Assembly (NCBI GenBank): GCA_951828585.1
Contig: OX639991.1
Span: 620,001-684,000 of the forward strand
DNA length: 64,000 nt
Source of the DNA: Longimicrobiales bacterium
Lineage (GTDB): Bacteria; Gemmatimonadota; Gemmatimonadetes; Longimicrobiales; Gaopeijiaceae
Direction: 5' to 3'
Positions 14,559 to 25,598 of the stretch are shown in pieces. Both the position numbers and the translations under genes were made by a program. Below the pieces are notes generated by a model. It saw only the letters and a program-made list of their open reading frames with translations, did no database searches and was not told where the DNA came from. Each line of letters starts with the position of its first letter. Position 1 is the first letter of the stretch.

Positions 14559-15644
14559 TCAGTCCCGGATTCGCAATCTCACCAGCGATGTGACGCCGAG
14601 GGCATCGTACCGCGTGGCGAGTAGGTCCCCATTCGAGCACTGGAACCACGGCTCATAGAGGACCGCATCCGACCGTTCTTCGGCGGCCAGCGTACCATCG
14701 GCATCAAACAGCTGCCAGATGGTGTGGCGCAGTGCGGGGTCGGGATTGGACCGGGTGATGACGTTCAGGACCCTACCATCGCCGAGCCCAAAGACGCCCC
14801 GTGATTGCGGATACCAGGCTCGGAAGCTGGTAACAGGAACTCCTTCGTCGTTTACCTCTTTGATGAGAATATCGTCCCCGGGGGACTTCAGCAGTCCTTC
14901 GATGGCTGCGATCTTATGGGCTTCGGGGGCTGCGGTCGTGAGGGCCGGGTCTTCGTATTGGATGATCTCATGCGGCGCTGCTCTTGAGTAAAGGAGGGAG
15001 CCATCCGCCAGGGCATCGAGCGCCCCGCCTGTACCCGCGAAGCGGGCCATCATGTCCTCGGCTTCCATCGGTGCGCCGAAACTGCGAATGTAGGCCCCGT
15101 CATCCCCGAACTGGTGAATGGCGTAGGGGGTTCCGAACACTCCGCCGCTGATGGCGAAACCGCCCGAAGGCAGGGCTGCAAATCCCTTGATCCATCCGAC
15201 CTTCAACGGGAGGGTGATGCGGCGAACCGATTCACCGGCGGGAGTGAAGATCTCGATAGCATTCCGGCTCATATCGTTGACGGCGATATTGCCATTGGGG
15301 AGGATGTCGATCCGGTTGATCCCGCGTACTTCGCCGGGTCCGTCCCCTTCCCTGGCGACGATGTAATCATCCTCCCTGGTTCCGTCCGGGTCGATGACCC
15401 ACACCTCGCGAACGTCCGCAATCCAGATTGTGCCCATGGAGGTTTCGATAGCTGCCCGGATCCTCGAGAGTCGGTCCAGCCGGGAGTTGCCGTCGAGTAC
15501 CCATACCTCGGTGACGGAAAGCCTGCCTACGGGGGTTTGCTGGCCCCAAAGGGGAGAGACGAGGGCCAGGGCCGTCCACCCGGCGAGCGCCGCGGCCCGC
15601 CGGGTGGACTGAGGGGTCCTAACCGTCAATTGGTGCCGCCGCAC
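14559..15644 (-). CDS. Exported six-bladed beta-propeller protein
   Basis: A 361-residue protein with an N-terminal signal (AALAGWTALALVSPLWGQQ) followed by repeated blade-like segments, for example GTIWIADVREVWVIDPDGT, then EGDGPGEVRGINRIDILPNG and GRVLNVITRSNPD. The GEGPGE-type motif is typical of the NHL/6-bladed propeller proteins abundant in Gemmatimonadota and Bacteroidota. No catalytic residues stand out; a binding role at the cell surface or in the periplasm is likely. Its start overlaps the Cys-rich protein gene by 26 bp, so the two are probably cotranslated. Confidence 0.75.
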   Translation of the reverse strand: MRRHQLTVRTPQSTRRAAALAGWTALALVSPLWGQQTPVGRLSVTEVWVLDGNSRLDRLSRIRAAIETSMGTIWIADVREVWVIDPDGTREDDYIVAREGDGPGEVRGINRIDILPNGNIAVNDMSRNAIEIFTPAGESVRRITLPLKVGWIKGFAALPSGGFAISGGVFGTPYAIHQFGDDGAYIRSFGAPMEAEDMMARFAGTGGALDALADGSLLYSRAAPHEIIQYEDPALTTAAPEAHKIAAIEGLLKSPGDDILIKEVNDEGVPVTSFRAWYPQSRGVFGLGDGRVLNVITRSNPDPALRHTIWQLFDADGTLAAEERSDAVLYEPWFQCSNGDLLATRYDALGVTSLVRLRIRD

Positions 15645-16146
15645 GGAGGCGGTCGTTCAGCATGTGGACATATTGGGTCAGGGAATACCGGAGTCGGTAG
15701 GCATCGAATTGCTCCCCTTCCACGCGATCAAACGTTCCGTCTCCGATCGCACGATACGCTACCGTCAGTTCTCCGTTTCCGCAGCCCCATGTTCCGAACA
15801 CATCTCCTTCCAGTCTCGCGACCACCACGCCCTCAGCTTCGCCGGTTTGCTCGGGGGGGACCAACTGCATGTCCCCGTCTTCGAGGTTCAGGGCAAAGGT
15901 GGGGTTGCAGATGTCGCCGGCGAGTTGGCAACATCCGTTGTTGGGGTTGTCCGGGTCGGTACCGCCCATGTTGCAGGAGGTGGACCCCCACACCGAACGG
16001 TCGCAATTGGCGCAGTCCGTGCAGGTCATGCAGCGCTCCGGCAGCGGCGGTCCGCCTCCATCTTGGGCGCTGGCGACACCGGATGTCGCGAGTGAGAGGG
16101 CGACCGCGATGAACGCGATCCCGAGTTTCCTGATTACCTCGTTCAT
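15619..16146 (-). CDS. Exported cysteine-rich protein, 175 aa, unknown family
   Basis: The ATG at 16146 is preceded by AAGGAGAA, an excellent ribosome site, so the longer frame upstream is not used. A clear signal peptide (residues 1-28, ending VASAQ) precedes a Cys-rich head with CMTCTDCANC, then single and paired cysteines in STSCNMGG, GCCQLAGDICN. A ninth Cys lies in GTWGCGNG. The C-terminal half is a small acidic beta-rich domain with no Cys. I recognise no family. It overlaps the second propeller gene by 26 bp and follows a smaller Cys-rich peptide gene, so it looks like part of the same exported, disulfide-dependent system. Confidence 0.65.
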   Translation of the reverse strand: MNEVIRKLGIAFIAVALSLATSGVASAQDGGGPPLPERCMTCTDCANCDRSVWGSTSCNMGGTDPDNPNNGCCQLAGDICNPTFALNLEDGDMQLVPPEQTGEAEGVVVARLEGDVFGTWGCGNGELTVAYRAIGDGTFDRVEGEQFDAYRLRYSLTQYVHMLNDRLRAAAPIDG

Positions 16147-16210
16147 GAGGGGTTCTCCTTGTGTAGGAGGGTGAAGGGCGGCTGGGACGCGTATCGTCCC
16201 TGCCGCTGGC

Positions 16211-16229
16211 GGGTCGGATTTCCCGACCC
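16211..16229. other. Stable hairpin between the two Cys-rich genes
   Basis: GGGTCGG and CCGACCC form a perfect 7-bp stem around a 5-base loop. It lies between the peptide gene (ends 16295) and the Cys-rich protein gene (starts 16146). There is no U-run on the minus-strand transcript, so it is more likely an mRNA-processing or stability element than an intrinsic terminator. Confidence 0.45.
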
Positions 16230-16294
16230 TATCGATCACGCCATCGGCCCTGGGTTCGTGTCCTCCTAGGGGGAGGCGGGAAATGATTGGAGAC

Positions 16295-16525
16295 TTACTG
16301 GCTCTCGTCTGGTCTCTCGCAATCCTCGGTGGTCAGACAGTTCCAGACGAAGAGGCAACACCTGTCACAGCAGTAGGGCCGCCCGGATGTCGTCTTCTTG
16401 CAACAATGGAAATAGAAGGCGCTACGAGCCTCCTGCGCCCTGCCCTCCGAGGCTCCTGTCACGAGCGGTAGGAGTGCGAGGTTGGCGAGGAACGCGATTA
16501 GTATCCAAGTGGGTTTGTTCTTCAT
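16295..16525 (-). CDS. Small exported Cys-rich peptide, 76 aa
   Basis: A signal peptide (MKNKPTWILIAFLANLALLP, cleavage probably near residues 24-31) is followed by a mature part of about 45 residues with eight cysteines in the pattern CC-x9-CC-xx-CC-x5-C-x5-C. The start ATG overlaps the stop of the upstream propeller lipoprotein as ATGA, supporting this as a real coupled gene despite its size. I recognise no family. The neighbouring thioredoxin-like protein could form or reduce its disulfides. It might be a structural, signalling or toxin-like peptide; nothing in the sequence decides. Confidence 0.7.
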   Translation of the reverse strand: MKNKPTWILIAFLANLALLPLVTGASEGRAQEARSAFYFHCCKKTTSGRPYCCDRCCLFVWNCLTTEDCERPDESQ

Positions 16526-17775
16526 GGCTTGAGTTTTCCTCGGTTCGTGGGCCACGCTTGGCGCGTGGCTGGGATGGTGGATGGTGATCGTGGGCGTTGA
16601 CGGGCGAAAGGCGGAACAAAGACGGTCGCGAGGCGCTGCAGGCCACCGGTGTCGGCGACCACTCCGAAGGCAAACGACTCGGTAATGCGGTGTGGGATGA
16701 AACCGGCGGGGAAAACCACGCGTGAAAAGGCCGGGGACGTTCGGTGAAAGCTCACGGTCGTCCACAGGGGACCATAGCCGAGAGGATGAGATCCTTCGAA
16801 GCTCTGGATCCAGACCAGGTTCGGGGCACACTTGAGGTCGACGGCGATTGGCTTTTCGGTTGCAAACAGGTCGGCGAAGTTCGCGGCCGCCTCGGTCGCA
16901 AGGCTGGAGATCTCGGTCTCCGAGGCACTCCCTCGCTCGATCTCGGCCCGGACTCTCGACATCATGTATGCAATCCGGGCGTCGCTGCCCAGCGGTTCAG
17001 AATGCCACGGCAGGGCAAACGCCGCGCGCTCGTTTCGAGCCGGATCCAGCATGAAGAGCGCTCGGGAAACGGGATCGAGAACGGCAATCCGCCCATCCGG
17101 ACAACCGTCCCAAAGGGGCACGGGCGCCAGGAGGCTGGCGGAGGGGAGGTGCGCGGCTCCGGGCAGATCCGTGGCGAAGTCAAACAGCGCTCTTGGGTCA
17201 CCGCCGTCGTCGGGAATGCGCACCAGTCGGCCGTTCCACAGGTCGCTGCCGCGGTTGACCCCCGAGTCGTAGCTCGCCACGACGAGACCGCCGGGCACGG
17301 GAACGGCCCTAAATGGGTCGCCGAAGGTGACGGTACCGATGTCCGACCGGATGGCTCCCCGAAGGGGGGTGCGCGAGGAGGAGAGCAGGGCACCGCCGGT
17401 GGAAAAGGTGAGAGCCGCGAAGGATCCCGAATCCCACACGGTAAGGGAGCCGCTGGATCCGCCGGGCCAGATGGCTGATGGAAAACGGAACTCGCCGGGT
17501 CCCTCTCCGACACTTCCGAATCTGGCCGTCAGCTTCCCGGTCGGTCCGACACCATGCACGTGGGGCGCGGACGCAGTCAGAGCCCATATTGTGTCATCAA
17601 CGACCAAGACATCCCTGACATCCCACAATGCGTCCTGGGCGGGAGACAGCACGGTGAGCGACTGCGGGTCGATCGGAATGACCGGCATATCCACGAGTTG
17701 TGGCCCGTCGCATGACGAAATGGCGAGTATCGCTGGAAGCGCGAGCGAGCATGGGAGACGTGTCACTTCTCTCAT
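16522..17775 (-). CDS. Beta-propeller lipoprotein
   Basis: A 417-residue protein with a lipoprotein signal (SLALPAILAISSC, lipid-modified Cys near residue 22). Blade-like repeats such as DDTIWALTASAPHVHGVGP and FGSVGEGPGEFRFPSAIWPG mark a six-bladed propeller of the same class as the gene at 14559. The last 35 residues are Pro/Arg/Thr-rich and look unstructured. It starts inside the stop of the thioredoxin-like gene (ATGA) and ends inside the start of the Cys-rich peptide gene (ATGA), so three products are translationally linked. It is probably anchored in the outer or inner membrane facing the periplasm. Confidence 0.75.
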   Translation of the reverse strand: MREVTRLPCSLALPAILAISSCDGPQLVDMPVIPIDPQSLTVLSPAQDALWDVRDVLVVDDTIWALTASAPHVHGVGPTGKLTARFGSVGEGPGEFRFPSAIWPGGSSGSLTVWDSGSFAALTFSTGGALLSSSRTPLRGAIRSDIGTVTFGDPFRAVPVPGGLVVASYDSGVNRGSDLWNGRLVRIPDDGGDPRALFDFATDLPGAAHLPSASLLAPVPLWDGCPDGRIAVLDPVSRALFMLDPARNERAAFALPWHSEPLGSDARIAYMMSRVRAEIERGSASETEISSLATEAAANFADLFATEKPIAVDLKCAPNLVWIQSFEGSHPLGYGPLWTTVSFHRTSPAFSRVVFPAGFIPHRITESFAFGVVADTGGLQRLATVFVPPFARQRPRSPSTIPATRQAWPTNRGKLKP

Positions 17776-18356
17776 CTCGTCGACTCGGAGCGTCGTGCCG
17801 CCGCCGACACGGAGGTGATTTCAGCAACTGCGTGGTCCACGCGCTCCAGCTCCGCTCCGTGACCGTGGAATCGGAGGACGCCATCCGGGTCGAAGACGTA
17901 GACCCAGGGGGTTCTCGATACCAGGAAGGCCTCTGGACTCGTTTCCTCGAAACCCGATACGCTCAACAAGTCGATGTTCCAAGTGAACCGCTCGGCGTAG
18001 GTTGCGGCGGGCCCGGGGAGCTCGCGGGTTACGGCAATCCTTCGAACGGGAGCCGCCCTTGAAACACCCGTAGCGAAGTGGGCGGCCCATTCGGGGGCCA
18101 CCGTGTCGCAAAACGCGCACTCGGGGTGGAAGGCGTAGACGACCGTCGCGGTGTACGGGGCGGTATCGAGGAGGACCGTCGTCAGGACGCTGTCTTCGGT
18201 GTAGCCGTTCAGCGATGTCACCGTGTCTCCGATCAGCACCGTCGGTGCCGGTGCCATCGCATCGTCTGCGGGCTGGGCGCGGACAATGACGTGAAGAGTC
18301 TGCGCAATGATCGCCAAGACCAGAAGGAACAACGCCACATCCTGATACCGCTTCAT
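17772..18356 (-). CDS. Membrane-anchored thioredoxin-like protein (TlpA/peroxiredoxin-like)
   Basis: A 194-residue protein with an uncleaved N-terminal helix (VALFLLVLAIIAQTLHVIV) and a periplasmic thioredoxin fold. The active site CAFC is at residues 80-83 in YAFHPECAFCDTVAPEW. The cis-Pro region is SRTPWVYVFDPDGV. TlpA-like proteins reduce or oxidise disulfides in exported substrates. It is the first gene of the ATGA-coupled set with a propeller lipoprotein and a Cys-rich peptide, so that peptide is an obvious candidate substrate (inference). Its upstream region is shared with the ParB-like gene at 26135 through repeat B. Confidence 0.78.
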   Translation of the reverse strand: MKRYQDVALFLLVLAIIAQTLHVIVRAQPADDAMAPAPTVLIGDTVTSLNGYTEDSVLTTVLLDTAPYTATVVYAFHPECAFCDTVAPEWAAHFATGVSRAAPVRRIAVTRELPGPAATYAERFTWNIDLLSVSGFEETSPEAFLVSRTPWVYVFDPDGVLRFHGHGAELERVDHAVAEITSVSAAARRSESTR

Positions 18357-21616: not shown

Positions 21617-23378
21617 CCTTATTCATGAACTTACTCAGGGAAGGCAATCTGGGGGGTTGACGGGGCTTCGGCAGACGGGAGGTCCGCCGAACGGGGTTTT
21701 GGGGGCGGTGCGAGCGGGGGCCGGGGTCGGAACACGCAGTTCATCCGGCGCGGATGGGCGATTTTCGGCACGAGGAGACACCTCGGTGCCGTGCAGGCCG
21801 CAGGGGGCCGGGAGAGGGGTCGGCGTGGCTGTTGTGGCCCCGCTATCCGGAGGGCCCGTGCAGCGTCGCGAGCCCGCGGGCGAGCATGCGCCAGTGCGCC
21901 GACGCGCCTCCGGTGGTCATCGTGATGCGGCGGCCCGATACGGTGAAGCGCGCCGGGGTGCGAAGCACGCGTTCGGCGAGGCGCCGCAGGCTCCAGCCGG
22001 TGCCGGTCGCGCGCTCCAGCAGGGCGCGCTGAACGTGCATGATCTGGTAGCCGAAGCCTGCGAGCAGCAGGCGCACCTGGTTGCACGCGAAGGGGTCCAC
22101 ACCCTTCTCGCGCTTCGCGATCTTCTTGCCCCGGTAGTGGCTCTTGCGGCGCGACGTGGACGACAGGGCCGGGGAGACGACGCTCATCAGCTCGCCCAGG
22201 TGGCCCTCCGCCTTGCCGCGCTTGCGGTACAGCGCCAGGAGGTCCTCGCCGGACATTTCCTCCGACGGCATCGAGGTCAGCAGCCAGAAGCAGCGTGGAA
22301 TGAGTTCGCCCGGCCGCTCGACGACGACCTGCACGACCCGGCGGGAACGGGACCACGACCCGGCCCGGTAGGACGACTCGCGGACCCAGGTGCGGGGTTC
22401 GCCGCCGGGCGCCCCGTTGTTCAGCGCATCCCAGGCTACGGCGTCCATGGCCGGCAGCGCCGGGCGCTTCAGCACGGCGTTGTTGCGCACCCGGGCCACA
22501 TAGTGCGTGCCCCGTTCCTCCAGCGCCGCCATCAGCGGCTCGCCGGGATATCCCGCGTCGAAGCGCACCGCTGCCTTCCCGCACAGATGCCGCTCCGCCC
22601 GCTCCAGCACCTCGAGGACGAACTCCAGCCCGCCGTCCGCCGTGTGCACCTGCCCCTCGCGCAGCCGCAGATCCAGGATTTCGCCCGTCTCCCCCGCCGA
22701 CGCGACGATCGGATGATACACGCGCCGGTGATAGTAGCCGTTCCACGCGCTGCCCGGCTGTTCCCCGTGGACCTCGACCGGCAGGCTGTCGATGTCGATT
22801 ACCAGCGTCTTCGGACGCCGCCGGCCGCCCATCGCCTTCAGCCGCCACCCCGCCAGCCGCTGCAACCCCTCGCGCAGCACCTCGACGCCCTCCTTCGCCG
22901 ACCACGCCGCCACCCGCCGTGACAGCGTCGGCTGCGAGGGCAGGCGCCCGCCCTTGCCCAGCGGAGCCGTGCCCGCCCGGTCGCCGGTGGCCAGCCGCAG
23001 CGCCGGATCGTCGCGCAGCTCCGTCGCGTCGCTATGCTCCCGGCGGCCCTGCCCCGCCAGCAGCAGAAGCGTCCGCGCCAGCCGCCTCTGAGAATGCCGG
23101 ATCCGGCGCCCGTCCCGCTTGTCCGGCAGCCCGTTCGCCAGAAACCGCGCCACCCTGCTGCGCCGCAGCAGCTCGCGCCCCGTCAGAGCCCCCGAATCCC
23201 CCGTGATCCGGTCCCGGCGGGACCCGATCCTGATCAACCTGTTGAAGCTAAACGGCGCATCCATCATCTTCACCCCTGGCGTGATGGCTGGCAGGTGCTC
23301 GCGATTCCCTGTAACGCATTGAATCTAAACACTTGCCGCCTCAACGTCGCCTCGCCTCCCGGCCATTCGTGAATAAGG
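21617..23378. mobile_element. IS1380-family insertion sequence
   Basis: The transposase gene is flanked by near-perfect 13-bp inverted repeats, CCTTATTCATGAA at 21617-21629 and TTCGTGAATAAGG at 23366-23378 (one mismatch). I could not find a clear 4-bp target duplication. The element sits directly beside the istB fragment on one side and ends only 4 bp from the stop of the DsbA-propeller gene on the other, so it may have replaced that gene's downstream region. Confidence 0.85.
21843..23273 (-). CDS. IS1380 transposase (DDE, group 1)
   Basis: A 476-residue full-length transposase. Features include the N-terminal region around RRDRITGDSGALTGREL, the first catalytic Asp block KTLVIDIDSLPVEVHGEQPG, the second in VRFDAGYPGEPLM, and the C-terminal YRKRGKAEGHLGEL with the catalytic Glu. 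The frame has no interruption, unlike the neighbouring IS110 and IS21 relics, so this is probably the most recent arrival and could be active. Confidence 0.92.
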   Translation of the reverse strand: MKMMDAPFSFNRLIRIGSRRDRITGDSGALTGRELLRRSRVARFLANGLPDKRDGRRIRHSQRRLARTLLLLAGQGRREHSDATELRDDPALRLATGDRAGTAPLGKGGRLPSQPTLSRRVAAWSAKEGVEVLREGLQRLAGWRLKAMGGRRRPKTLVIDIDSLPVEVHGEQPGSAWNGYYHRRVYHPIVASAGETGEILDLRLREGQVHTADGGLEFVLEVLERAERHLCGKAAVRFDAGYPGEPLMAALEERGTHYVARVRNNAVLKRPALPAMDAVAWDALNNGAPGGEPRTWVRESSYRAGSWSRSRRVVQVVVERPGELIPRCFWLLTSMPSEEMSGEDLLALYRKRGKAEGHLGELMSVVSPALSSTSRRKSHYRGKKIAKREKGVDPFACNQVRLLLAGFGYQIMHVQRALLERATGTGWSLRRLAERVLRTPARFTVSGRRITMTTGGASAHWRMLARGLATLHGPSG

Positions 23379-23382
23379 GGGG

Positions 23383-25239
23383 CTAATGCCGAATCACCCG
23401 CAATGCGGTCATTACTGGTACATCAAGCGCGTCCAGGGTCAACACTACAACCACGTCATCGCCAAGAAACGCGACAGGGAACGGAGAATCGGGTGGGAGG
23501 GTACCCATATACTCCCCATCTGCTCCAAACACATCCACGTTGTTGGGTTCATCCGACACTCTTCCCCGCTGTATCCATATCTCCTCTCCATCACCCGACA
23601 TCACGACTCCTGACACGGCCTGCAGGTGCTCCCCGAACCCGAGACCATCAACTACACGTGCAGCAGGAAGACTGCTACACCTGTGGCTAACCAACTCCGG
23701 TCGTGCTACAACCTCCCGCCTAGCCATGCTAGCACTCACCGGTCGCGACGATAAGTCACGCTCGATTCGAAGTATCACGTCCTCCCCGTCAAAAACATGA
23801 ATGACATAATCACGATCTTCGGCAATGACGATGCGACTGCCCTTCGCATCCCATGCTAGTCGTGGCTCGAAAATCTTGGGCATGTATGTACCAGTGAAAC
23901 CGCAGGAGGGAAAATCAACTGGCGCTCTACTTATCTCCAAACCCTCGATCAGCGTAGTCGTCTCTGTCTCCGTCGCACGTGCTACGTGGTGCCTTCCAAC
24001 CAATACGTCATCGTCGCCGCCGCGTGCACCTCCAAGCATCTTGAGCCCCAGAAACACCGCATTTCGGTCGTATACATGCAACCCCCTTGCGTGCCCAAAT
24101 GGCTCTGCGAGTCTGAGCGGATCCATCCCGGACCACTCGCCAAACTCGCCAACACGCCACCGAACTATTCGGCCACGATCAAAGACACTCAGCACACTGT
24201 CTCCAGTTAGGCCCAGTGCCAATGGGTTCAACATTTCTCCCGGACCTTCACCACGCCTTCCAACTGAGTCTACGACCAATCCCCCGACAACGACAAGCAC
24301 CTTCTGCCGCCGCCGGTCCAGGACAAATACCCTGCTGCCATGCGAATCCGCGTCGACGTGCGCGGCGGTCAAGAAAGGAATGCCGCCAATGCGGGTGTCG
24401 GCGATACCTCCGACCTGCCATTGTGGCTCGAAAGTCCAATCCAGCTCCGTGTCTTCACCTGTGTGTTTGACTAACACTGGGGCAACCTGTGCCTCCTGGG
24501 CCGCTACCGGTCCCGGACGTGCCAGCTTGTCCACGAACTGCGAGATTGCGTTGATCCCGCTTTCCCTATTGATTCGCGAGAGCGATTCCACCACGAATGC
24601 GCGCATTTCTCGAAGGCCGATGTAGCCCTCCACAAGAAAACCGTCTACAATGTAGCTCGGTGTCCCCCTTAGGGGTACGCGAGAATAGCCAAGGCTAGGA
24701 CTCGGCGGCCGGGCAGATTCGATACAACCAGCCAAGGGTTCAGCGCGGTCCGCGAATCGTCTATCGATGGCCTTGTCCCATGTCGCGACAACGAAATCGC
24801 TATAGTTGGCGAACAGGAAATCCTGGACATCAGTGAACCAACCCATCGTATTCCCACAGTGTAGCGCACGCTCTACTAAGTCGGCTTTCATAGTGCCGAA
24901 TGGAAACTGGTGGTAGACGACCCTAAGATCCTGTGGGAACTCAGCTCGCAACGCGCGCAAGTCATGAACCGCATCAGCACATGGTCCGCATCCATAGTCA
25001 ATGAACACAACCACAGTGACATCGGCATTCTCAGGCCCGTGCCGATAGCCAGTAGCCGCCAGCGCCTCCCAGCCTTCCACTTGCTCAGCGCCGGTGGTCA
25101 GCGTTGGGTCCGACAGTGCACATCGAACAACAAGCAGAGCGGCAATGACCGTTACCGTGAGCGCAGTGAGGTTCGCACCAACCAATCTGTCTGAGACCCT
25201 GGATACTATCATGGTCGCGTCTCTTGTTGGGGTTTCCAA
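23383..25239 (-). CDS. DsbA-like thioredoxin domain fused to a beta-propeller
   Basis: A 618-residue exported protein. Residues about 23-42 form a membrane anchor or signal. Residues about 70-215 form a DsbA-like thioredoxin domain with CGPC at 84-87 (VVVFIDYGCGPCADAVHDL) and the cis-Pro block RGTPSYIVDGFLVEG. From about residue 255 on it is a six-bladed propeller with the GRRGEGPGEMLNPLALGLTG motif. The G+C content is visibly lower than in flanking genes, suggesting a different history. The fusion unites in one chain the two functions that are separate genes at 16522-18356. A small Cys-rich peptide gene lies 131 bp upstream. The gene ends 4 bp from the IS1380 inverted repeat. Confidence 0.8.
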   Translation of the reverse strand: METPTRDATMIVSRVSDRLVGANLTALTVTVIAALLVVRCALSDPTLTTGAEQVEGWEALAATGYRHGPENADVTVVVFIDYGCGPCADAVHDLRALRAEFPQDLRVVYHQFPFGTMKADLVERALHCGNTMGWFTDVQDFLFANYSDFVVATWDKAIDRRFADRAEPLAGCIESARPPSPSLGYSRVPLRGTPSYIVDGFLVEGYIGLREMRAFVVESLSRINRESGINAISQFVDKLARPGPVAAQEAQVAPVLVKHTGEDTELDWTFEPQWQVGGIADTRIGGIPFLTAAHVDADSHGSRVFVLDRRRQKVLVVVGGLVVDSVGRRGEGPGEMLNPLALGLTGDSVLSVFDRGRIVRWRVGEFGEWSGMDPLRLAEPFGHARGLHVYDRNAVFLGLKMLGGARGGDDDVLVGRHHVARATETETTTLIEGLEISRAPVDFPSCGFTGTYMPKIFEPRLAWDAKGSRIVIAEDRDYVIHVFDGEDVILRIERDLSSRPVSASMARREVVARPELVSHRCSSLPAARVVDGLGFGEHLQAVSGVVMSGDGEEIWIQRGRVSDEPNNVDVFGADGEYMGTLPPDSPFPVAFLGDDVVVVLTLDALDVPVMTALRVIRH

Positions 25240-25287
25240 AAACTCTTATCGCCGGATTGAGATGAAACGGAGGAAAGCCTCGTAAGG

Positions 25288-25354
25288 GGCCGGGGAACCC
25301 CCTGAGTCACTCGCAGAACCTGAAGGAAAGTCTTGCTCATGGGGGTCCCCGGCC
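25288..25354. promoter_or_regulatory. Large inverted repeat between peptide and DsbA-propeller genes
   Basis: GGCCGGGGAACCCCC at 25288-25302 pairs with GGGGGTCCCCGGCC at 25341-25354 with one extra base, around a 38-base loop. It begins about 16 bp after the peptide stop on the transcript. A strong stem here could terminate or attenuate transcription, or protect the peptide mRNA so that much more peptide than enzyme is made. The structure is seen; the role is inferred. Confidence 0.6.
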
Positions 25355-25370
25355 TCTAACACGGGTGCGT

Positions 25371-25598
25371 TCAGCTCGGACCGCCGACTACATCGTCGGG
25401 TGGGACGTTCGTCGTACACCGATGGTCCCCTGGGTCGTACATCCAACACCTCTTTCCGCAACACAACTGTGGGTCGATTCCATAGCAATCAGACCCGTCG
25501 GTGAGACACATGGGACGTGAGACAGCTCTTGTGGGGCCGGCGGACATGGCGGCTAGTGAAATCGTCACAGCCATGAACATGATCCAAATGCGGCGCAT
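25371..25598 (-). CDS. Small exported Cys-rich peptide, 75 aa
   Basis: A signal peptide (MRRIWIMFMAVTISLAAMSA, cleavage near residues 20-26) precedes a mature part of about 50 residues with six cysteines in the pattern C-x6-C-x7-CC-x3-C-x9-C. The ATG at 25598 has AAAGGATGG about ten bases upstream. It lies directly upstream of the DsbA-propeller gene. It is not similar in sequence to the peptide at 16295, but size, export, Cys richness and company are the same. No family recognised. Confidence 0.65.
   Translation of the reverse strand: MRRIWIMFMAVTISLAAMSAGPTRAVSRPMCLTDGSDCYGIDPQLCCGKRCWMYDPGDHRCTTNVPPDDVVGGPS

What the first reader, a model, noticed from the sequence alone, without database searches (positions are those of the whole stretch)
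23383..25598. Second copy of the module with thioredoxin and propeller fused in one protein
The same three functions recur about 7 kb away: a 6-Cys exported peptide and, 131 bp downstream, a DsbA-like domain (CGPC) fused to a six-bladed propeller. Gene fusion of neighbours elsewhere separate is strong circumstantial evidence that they work together. The peptides are not alike in sequence, so the shared property is export plus cysteine richness.
Basis: partly seen in the sequence, partly recalled or inferred. Interest (0 to 1): 0.78.

Follow-up and report, generated by a model that had tools for sequence, protein, structure and literature searches.

The report
Dedicated disulfide folder for exported peptides
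In a little-studied soil and water phylum of bacteria, a membrane-bound disulfide-bond enzyme, here fused to a propeller-shaped protein, is coded again and again beside small exported peptides whose sequence varies wildly but whose cysteine number is almost always even, which points to an undescribed, widespread system for making disulfide-rich peptides.

Summary
Window 25371-25598(-) encodes a 75-aa exported six-cysteine peptide. 131 bp downstream lies a 618-aa protein: a membrane helix, a DsbA-like domain (CGPC) and a six-bladed NHL-type propeller (AlphaFold pLDDT 87). More broadly, 63 of 88 members of this membrane-anchored DsbA-like family, from about 47 genomes of one class (apparently Gemmatimonadota), have an exported Cys-rich small ORF beside them, against 3 of 453 random ORFs and none of 117 ordinary DsbA genes from other phyla. 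The cysteine number is even in 65 of 67 peptides. Among close pairs the leader is more conserved than the mature part, and all are under coding constraint. The propeller is the commonest partner (52/88) but not the only one: TonB-dependent receptors or MacB/FtsX permeases replace it elsewhere. Best reading: a dedicated oxidative-folding device for a variable disulfide-rich secreted peptide. It works like PedC-pediocin or DsbA-STII but belongs to no described family. The peptide's role is unknown. The '7 kb away copy' is an analogous module with a different thioredoxin and a conserved 8-Cys peptide.

The parts
25371..25598 (-). Exported six-cysteine peptide precursor (75 aa)
   Evidence: homologues L088 and L093
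25524..25598 (-). Predicted Sec signal peptide (about residues 1-25; cleavage site inferred from an AxA-like site)
   Evidence: hydrophobicity rule; no SignalP available
25374..25523 (-). Predicted mature peptide, Cys spacing C-X6-C-X7-CC-X3-C-X9-C (knottin-like spacing)
25240..25370 (-). 131-nt spacer that can form a strong hairpin between peptide and fusion gene (z -2.3)
23383..25239 (-). DsbA-propeller fusion protein (618 aa; TTG start, or ATG at 25212)
25114..25206 (-). N-terminal membrane helix (residues 12-42)
24562..25086 (-). DsbA/ScsC-like thioredoxin domain (residues 52-226)
24979..24990 (-). Active-site CGPC (C84-C87)
23389..24477 (-). Six-bladed NHL-type beta-propeller domain (residues 255-617)
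17772..18356 (-). Neighbouring analogous module: TlpA-like thioredoxin (CAFC)
16522..17775 (-). Neighbouring module: propeller lipoprotein
16295..16525 (-). Neighbouring module: exported peptide of a conserved 8-Cys family

Best explanation
A dedicated periplasmic folding device for a secreted disulfide-rich peptide. The small precursor is exported through Sec. Its membrane-anchored DsbA-like neighbour oxidises (and perhaps proofreads) the cysteines. The genome's only VKOR probably recycles the enzyme, since no DsbB was found. The propeller is fused to the oxidoreductase here and is usually a separate lipoprotein or exported protein; it holds or hands on the peptide at the membrane. Related loci use an outer-membrane TonB-type receptor or a MacB/FtsX permease instead. 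The peptide's final role is most likely extracellular (antagonism or signalling), as it is the fast-changing part. Shown here: co-localisation, recurrent fusion, even Cys number, coding constraint, folds. Inferred: that the peptide is the enzyme's substrate, the recycling route, the propeller's holding role, and the peptide's extracellular function.
For: 63/88 family members have an exported peptide with 4 or more Cys nearby on the same strand. Controls: 3/88 on the opposite strand, 3/453 random ORFs, 1/9 generic DsbA in the class, 0/117 generic DsbA in other phyla; Fisher p 1e-57 and 3e-32, rows not independent. 5/5 fusions have a six-Cys peptide immediately upstream, with at least three tree positions. 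Cys number even in 65/67 peptides, or 20/21 rough families. Cys spacings of 3-8 enriched, CxC and CxxC depleted. pN/pS below 1 in all 39 close pairs; leader more conserved than mature part in 16/16 DsbA-linked pairs. CXXC found in every family member examined. Own genome has VKOR and no DsbB. Fold: DsbA/ScsC/BdbD-like domain plus NHL propeller. Hairpin after the peptide gene in 19/67 against 3/60 controls, consistent with more peptide than enzyme being made.
Against: No direct evidence that the peptide is the substrate. 25/88 family members lack a peptide under the strict filter, though some are contig-edge cases or just miss the filter. Propellers most similar to the fused one (L085, L086) have no peptide nearby, and about 120 propellers lying far from a DsbA gene mostly lack one, so the propeller is not specific to peptides. 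AlphaFold could not fold the peptide (pLDDT 50.6).
Confidence: 0.7

Rival explanations
1. The peptide is a bacteriocin-like weapon: secreted, hypervariable, folded by a dedicated oxidase, with the propeller or receptor acting in immunity, docking or export.
For: Leader conserved and mature part variable in 16/16 pairs; tandem divergent copies (L100, L173, L185); 62 distinct Cys spacings among 67. Literature: PedC, BdbA and BlpGst serve disulfide bacteriocins (PMC4919988); MacB-type pumps export small disulfide-bonded peptides (PMC5985334), and FtsX/MacB permeases lie next to several loci.
Against: Mature peptides are acidic (median net charge -4; 55 negative, 7 positive), unlike most membrane-active bacteriocins. 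No recurrent immunity gene or leader-cleaving ABC exporter. No activity tested.
Confidence: 0.35
2. The peptide is a small structural or regulatory subunit that stays bound to its propeller, receptor or permease in the envelope and is not released; the DsbA folds this complex.
For: The partner is exchanged between loci while peptide plus DsbA stay constant; Oar-like TonB receptors with CarboxypepD_reg domains, often with a PDZ protein, lie next to the DsbA in about 16-18 of 36 propeller-free loci; acidic peptides.
Confidence: 0.25
3. The peptides bind metal (metallothionein- or copper-stress-like) and the oxidoreductase is an ScsC-type copper-tolerance protein.
For: The DsbA domain's closest solved folds include ScsC proteins (Z about 18).
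Against: CxC and CxxC spacings are depleted (10 and 26 against 44 and 40 expected); His only 1.4%; even Cys number; no recurrent metal-handling neighbour.
Confidence: 0.06
4. The module is a thiol-redox sensor: the peptide is an oxidisable signal read by the propeller, unrelated to secretion of a product.
For: The neighbouring module's TlpA-like thioredoxin often keeps only the first active-site Cys, so not every such partner is an oxidase.
Against: The DsbA-linked family keeps CXXC and looks like an oxidase/isomerase; a sensor peptide would not be expected to hypervary.
Confidence: 0.1

Closest known systems
PedC-pediocin, BdbA-sublancin, BlpGst-thermophilin (dedicated thiol-disulfide oxidoreductases in bacteriocin operons)
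   Same: A CXXC thioredoxin-fold enzyme is encoded beside a small disulfide peptide and promotes its correct bonds (PMC4919988).
   Different: Those are Firmicute bacteriocins with dedicated export. Here the peptide has a Sec-type leader, the enzyme is a membrane-anchored DsbA/ScsC type, the peptides hypervary across a Gram-negative class, and a propeller, receptor or permease is the partner; bioactivity unknown.
STII (heat-stable enterotoxin II) with DsbA and MacAB-TolC
   Same: Same proposed path: Sec export, periplasmic DsbA makes the disulfides, MacB-type pump sends the small peptide out (PMC5985334).
   Different: STII uses the general periplasmic Dsb system and pump; here the oxidase is dedicated and linked, sometimes fused to the partner. 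No sequence relation is claimed.
NHLRC2 / SOQ1 (thioredoxin-like plus NHL propeller)
   Same: [quoted passage not shown] quenching-protein lumenal structures among the fold matches).
   Different: Their thioredoxin is TlpA/Trx8 type with CCINC and no oxidoreductase activity in the insulin test, and no conserved gene neighbours; here it is DsbA type with CXXC and a peptide gene upstream.
Knottins (inhibitor cystine knot)
   Same: The window peptide's six-Cys spacing fits the knottin pattern; Pfam's nearest family is an ICK toxin family, but only at E=0.22.
   Different: Only 3 of 67 peptides have the CC-type knottin pattern; no confident fold.
Bacteroidota exported propellers (DUF5128, DUF4221, BF0058)
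   Same: Exported six-bladed propellers of the same fold.
   Different: Sequence match below family cut-offs; any link to Cys-rich peptides there was not tested.

Membership tests
DsbA-like thiol oxidoreductase (Pfam Thioredoxin_4/DSBA) | Thioredoxin fold with helical insert, CXXC and cis-proline | tested here: met
   Pfam 28.2 bits against cut-off 23.2; family invariant C84, C87, P194; fold Z about 18 to ScsC and 16 to BdbD
DsbA-like thiol oxidoreductase (Pfam Thioredoxin_4/DSBA) | Oxidase activity recycled by DsbB or VKOR | not testable with these tools
   Only indirect: one VKOR in the genome, no DsbB
NHLRC2/SOQ1 family | Six-bladed NHL propeller C-terminal to a thioredoxin fold | tested here: met
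NHLRC2/SOQ1 family | TlpA/Trx8-type thioredoxin with CC(I/V)NC motif | tested here: not met
   DsbA-type domain with CGPC here, CPFC/CPAC/CPYC in relatives
Bacteriocin operon with dedicated TDOR (PedC type) | CXXC thioredoxin-fold gene next to a small disulfide peptide gene | tested here: met
   63/88 loci, 5/5 fusions
Bacteriocin operon with dedicated TDOR (PedC type) | Leader-cleaving dedicated ABC exporter in the operon | tested here: not met
   Recurrent neighbours are propeller, TonB receptor, PDZ protein and FtsX/MacB only; leaders are Sec-like
Bacteriocin operon with dedicated TDOR (PedC type) | Antibacterial activity and immunity gene | not testable with these tools
   no assay; no recurrent immunity candidate
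Knottin / ICK peptide | Six cysteines with ICK spacing | tested here: met
   C-X6-C-X7-CC-X3-C-X9-C; same type in L088 and L093
Knottin / ICK peptide | Cystine-knot fold | tested here: inconclusive
   AlphaFold pLDDT 50.6
NVEALA and other curated peptide families | Match to a curated Pfam or NCBIfam model | tested here: not met
   68 peptides scanned; only stray weak hits, none shared by the set
Radical-SAM-modified Cys peptides (TIGR04117-like, sacti/ranthipeptides) | Radical SAM enzyme in the neighbourhood | tested here: not met
   0 of 526 neighbouring gene calls have CxxxCxxC in a 200-700 aa protein

The most novel reading that the evidence does not exclude
This bacterial class holds an undescribed, hypervariable repertoire of disulfide-rich secreted miniproteins (some knottin-like). 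Each is made with its own membrane-anchored oxidase and an exchangeable envelope partner (propeller, TonB receptor or MacB permease), a bacterial analogue of venom or defensin arsenals.
Probability: 0.4. Interest if true: 0.88.

Novelty: new variant of a known kind. Interest (0 to 1): 0.74.

Why it matters
Dedicated disulfide enzymes for single peptides are known from a few Gram-positive bacteriocins. A class-wide Gram-negative system with variable peptides, none in curated families, would be a new source of stable disulfide miniproteins. It would also give a natural series of enzyme-substrate pairs, some with the enzyme covalently fused to a presenter domain, for asking how DsbA enzymes choose substrates, and a function for part of the large propeller expansion in these genomes.

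Tried and rejected
Chance ORF: rejected (3/453 random anchors, pN/pS below 1 in all close pairs, homologous copies). Propeller as the common denominator: rejected (120 propellers far from a DsbA gene mostly lack peptides; closest propellers L085 and L086 have none). Radical SAM peptide (weak TIGR04117 matches, E 0.004 at best): rejected, no radical SAM neighbours. Metal-binding peptide: disfavoured by spacing and His content. Knottin fold for the peptide: not resolved (pLDDT 50.6). Searching relatives of the window peptide (A6) in 121 genomes found only three clear members (window, G007, G018). Literature: 8 searches, no description of this association found in the held open library (subscription papers and preprints not covered).

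Full report
Setting. The window lies in a 4.47-Mb single-contig genome.

Observation. On the minus strand, 25371-25598 encodes a 75-aa peptide with a hydrophobic leader and six cysteines, and 23383-25239 a 618-aa protein 131 bp downstream. Pfam sees a Thioredoxin_4 domain (E 2.6e-6) and only a trace of a propeller. The AlphaFold model (42-row alignment, mean pLDDT 87) has an N-terminal helix 12-42, a DsbA-like domain 52-226 and a six-bladed propeller 255-617. Structural matches: NHL propellers (1q7f, Z 19.4, 3.7 A over 256) and ScsC/BdbD-type DsbA proteins (Z 16-18). The relative placement of the domains is less sure (pTM 0.66).

I built a profile from ten DsbA domains (A1) chosen by similarity to the enzyme or propeller, not by having peptides, searched 295 genomes of the class and fetched the surroundings of the strong matches. 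Five proteins are true DsbA-propeller fusions: the window's, L088, L104, L100 and L209, in five genomes of one genus. All five have a six-Cys exported ORF upstream (50-237 bp from the DsbA domain). On a 96-row tree the fusions occupy three places, with at least four label changes forced by well-supported branches; the window row has a long branch, so its exact place is unsure.

Beyond fusions. Of 88 distinct family members with the membrane helix (about 47 genomes, families f1, f3, f4, f6, f7 of the class), 63 have an exported small ORF with 4 or more Cys, ATG start and ribosome-binding site within 1.7 kb upstream or 1.35 kb downstream on the same strand. Controls: 3/88 on the opposite strand, 3/453 random long ORFs, 1/9 generic DsbA genes of the class, 3/120 propellers far from a DsbA gene, and 0/117 generic DsbA genes, nearly all from other phyla, while both Gemmatimonadota family members in that set did have one (one of them is the same contig as L161). 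With complete upstream sequence: 54/74; outside the seed loci: 51/78. Signal peptides were judged by a simple hydrophobicity rule, not by SignalP.

The peptides. Cysteine number is even in 65/67 (4, 6, 8 or 10). Spacings of 3-8 residues are over-represented and CxC/CxxC under-represented. 62 distinct spacing patterns occur among 67; mature parts are acidic (median net charge -4). Close pairs show coding constraint (pN/pS below 1 in 39/39; median 0.51 for DsbA-linked pairs), and the leader is more conserved than the mature part in 16/16 DsbA-linked pairs, the reverse of what is usual for signal peptides (pairs are not independent). No Pfam or NCBIfam family covers them. The window peptide and its two relatives in G007 and G018 share a knottin-type spacing, but AlphaFold gave no confident fold.

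Partners. A propeller lies next to or fused with the DsbA gene in 52/88; it usually carries its own lipoprotein or Sec signal. In about half of the 36 others a TonB-dependent receptor with CarboxypepD_reg domain and/or a small PDZ protein is adjacent; in 5 an FtsX/MacB-type permease. No recurrent protease-exporter, radical SAM enzyme or immunity gene was seen. The genome has one VKOR, next to an ordinary DsbA, and no DsbB.

The neighbouring module. 14559-18356 holds a TlpA-like thioredoxin, propellers and an 8-Cys peptide. This trio recurs mainly in the same genus with a conserved peptide (all eight Cys invariant in 20 sequences). The thioredoxin keeps the first active-site Cys always but the second only in part of the family; its profile reaches thioredoxin-like and disulfide-isomerase structures. 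So two different thioredoxin classes have been paired with exported Cys-rich peptides and propellers. That strengthens the functional link, but it makes 'second copy' inaccurate.

Mechanism. The best-supported reading is Sec export of the peptide, oxidation by the linked membrane-anchored DsbA, and hand-over to an envelope partner. The scheme parallels STII (Sec, DsbA, then MacAB-TolC; PMC5985334) and the dedicated TDORs of bacteriocin operons (PMC4919988). A thioredoxin-NHL chain is known in NHLRC2/SOQ1 (PMC6107167), but with another thioredoxin class, without oxidoreductase activity in the insulin test, and without conserved gene neighbours. That the peptide is the substrate, and what it does afterwards, remain inferences.

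Noticed in passing
whole genome G000: About 90 matches to the propeller across one 4.5-Mb genome, many in tandem runs (for example near 265-274 kb and 2.72-2.73 Mb): a striking propeller expansion, mostly without peptides.
   Followed up: partly
window 17772-18356 (-) and relatives L325-L342: TlpA-like thioredoxin family paired with a conserved 8-Cys peptide; the first active-site Cys is invariant but the second is Ser or Thr in several members.
   Followed up: partly
window 15619-16146 (-): 175-aa exported protein with nine Cys near its N-terminus, between the 8-Cys peptide and a second propeller; function not examined.
   Followed up: no
window 25240-25370 (-): Strong hairpin in the spacer between peptide and fusion gene (z -2.3); similar hairpins follow 19 of 67 peptide genes against 3 of 60 controls, perhaps setting peptide-to-enzyme ratio.
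   Followed up: partly
window 21843-23273 (-): IS1380-family transposase directly downstream of the fusion gene; the 19-21 kb stretch also looks like remains of other transposases, so the two modules sit in a mobile-element-rich region.
   Followed up: no
L098, L099, L135-L143, L149: Peptide plus DsbA accompanied by a small PDZ-domain protein and an Oar-like TonB-dependent receptor instead of a propeller.
   Followed up: partly
alignment A4 (68 peptides): One peptide matches Pfam's plant defensin-like family AtDEF-like at E 8e-5; probably a shared cysteine pattern, not checked.
   Followed up: no
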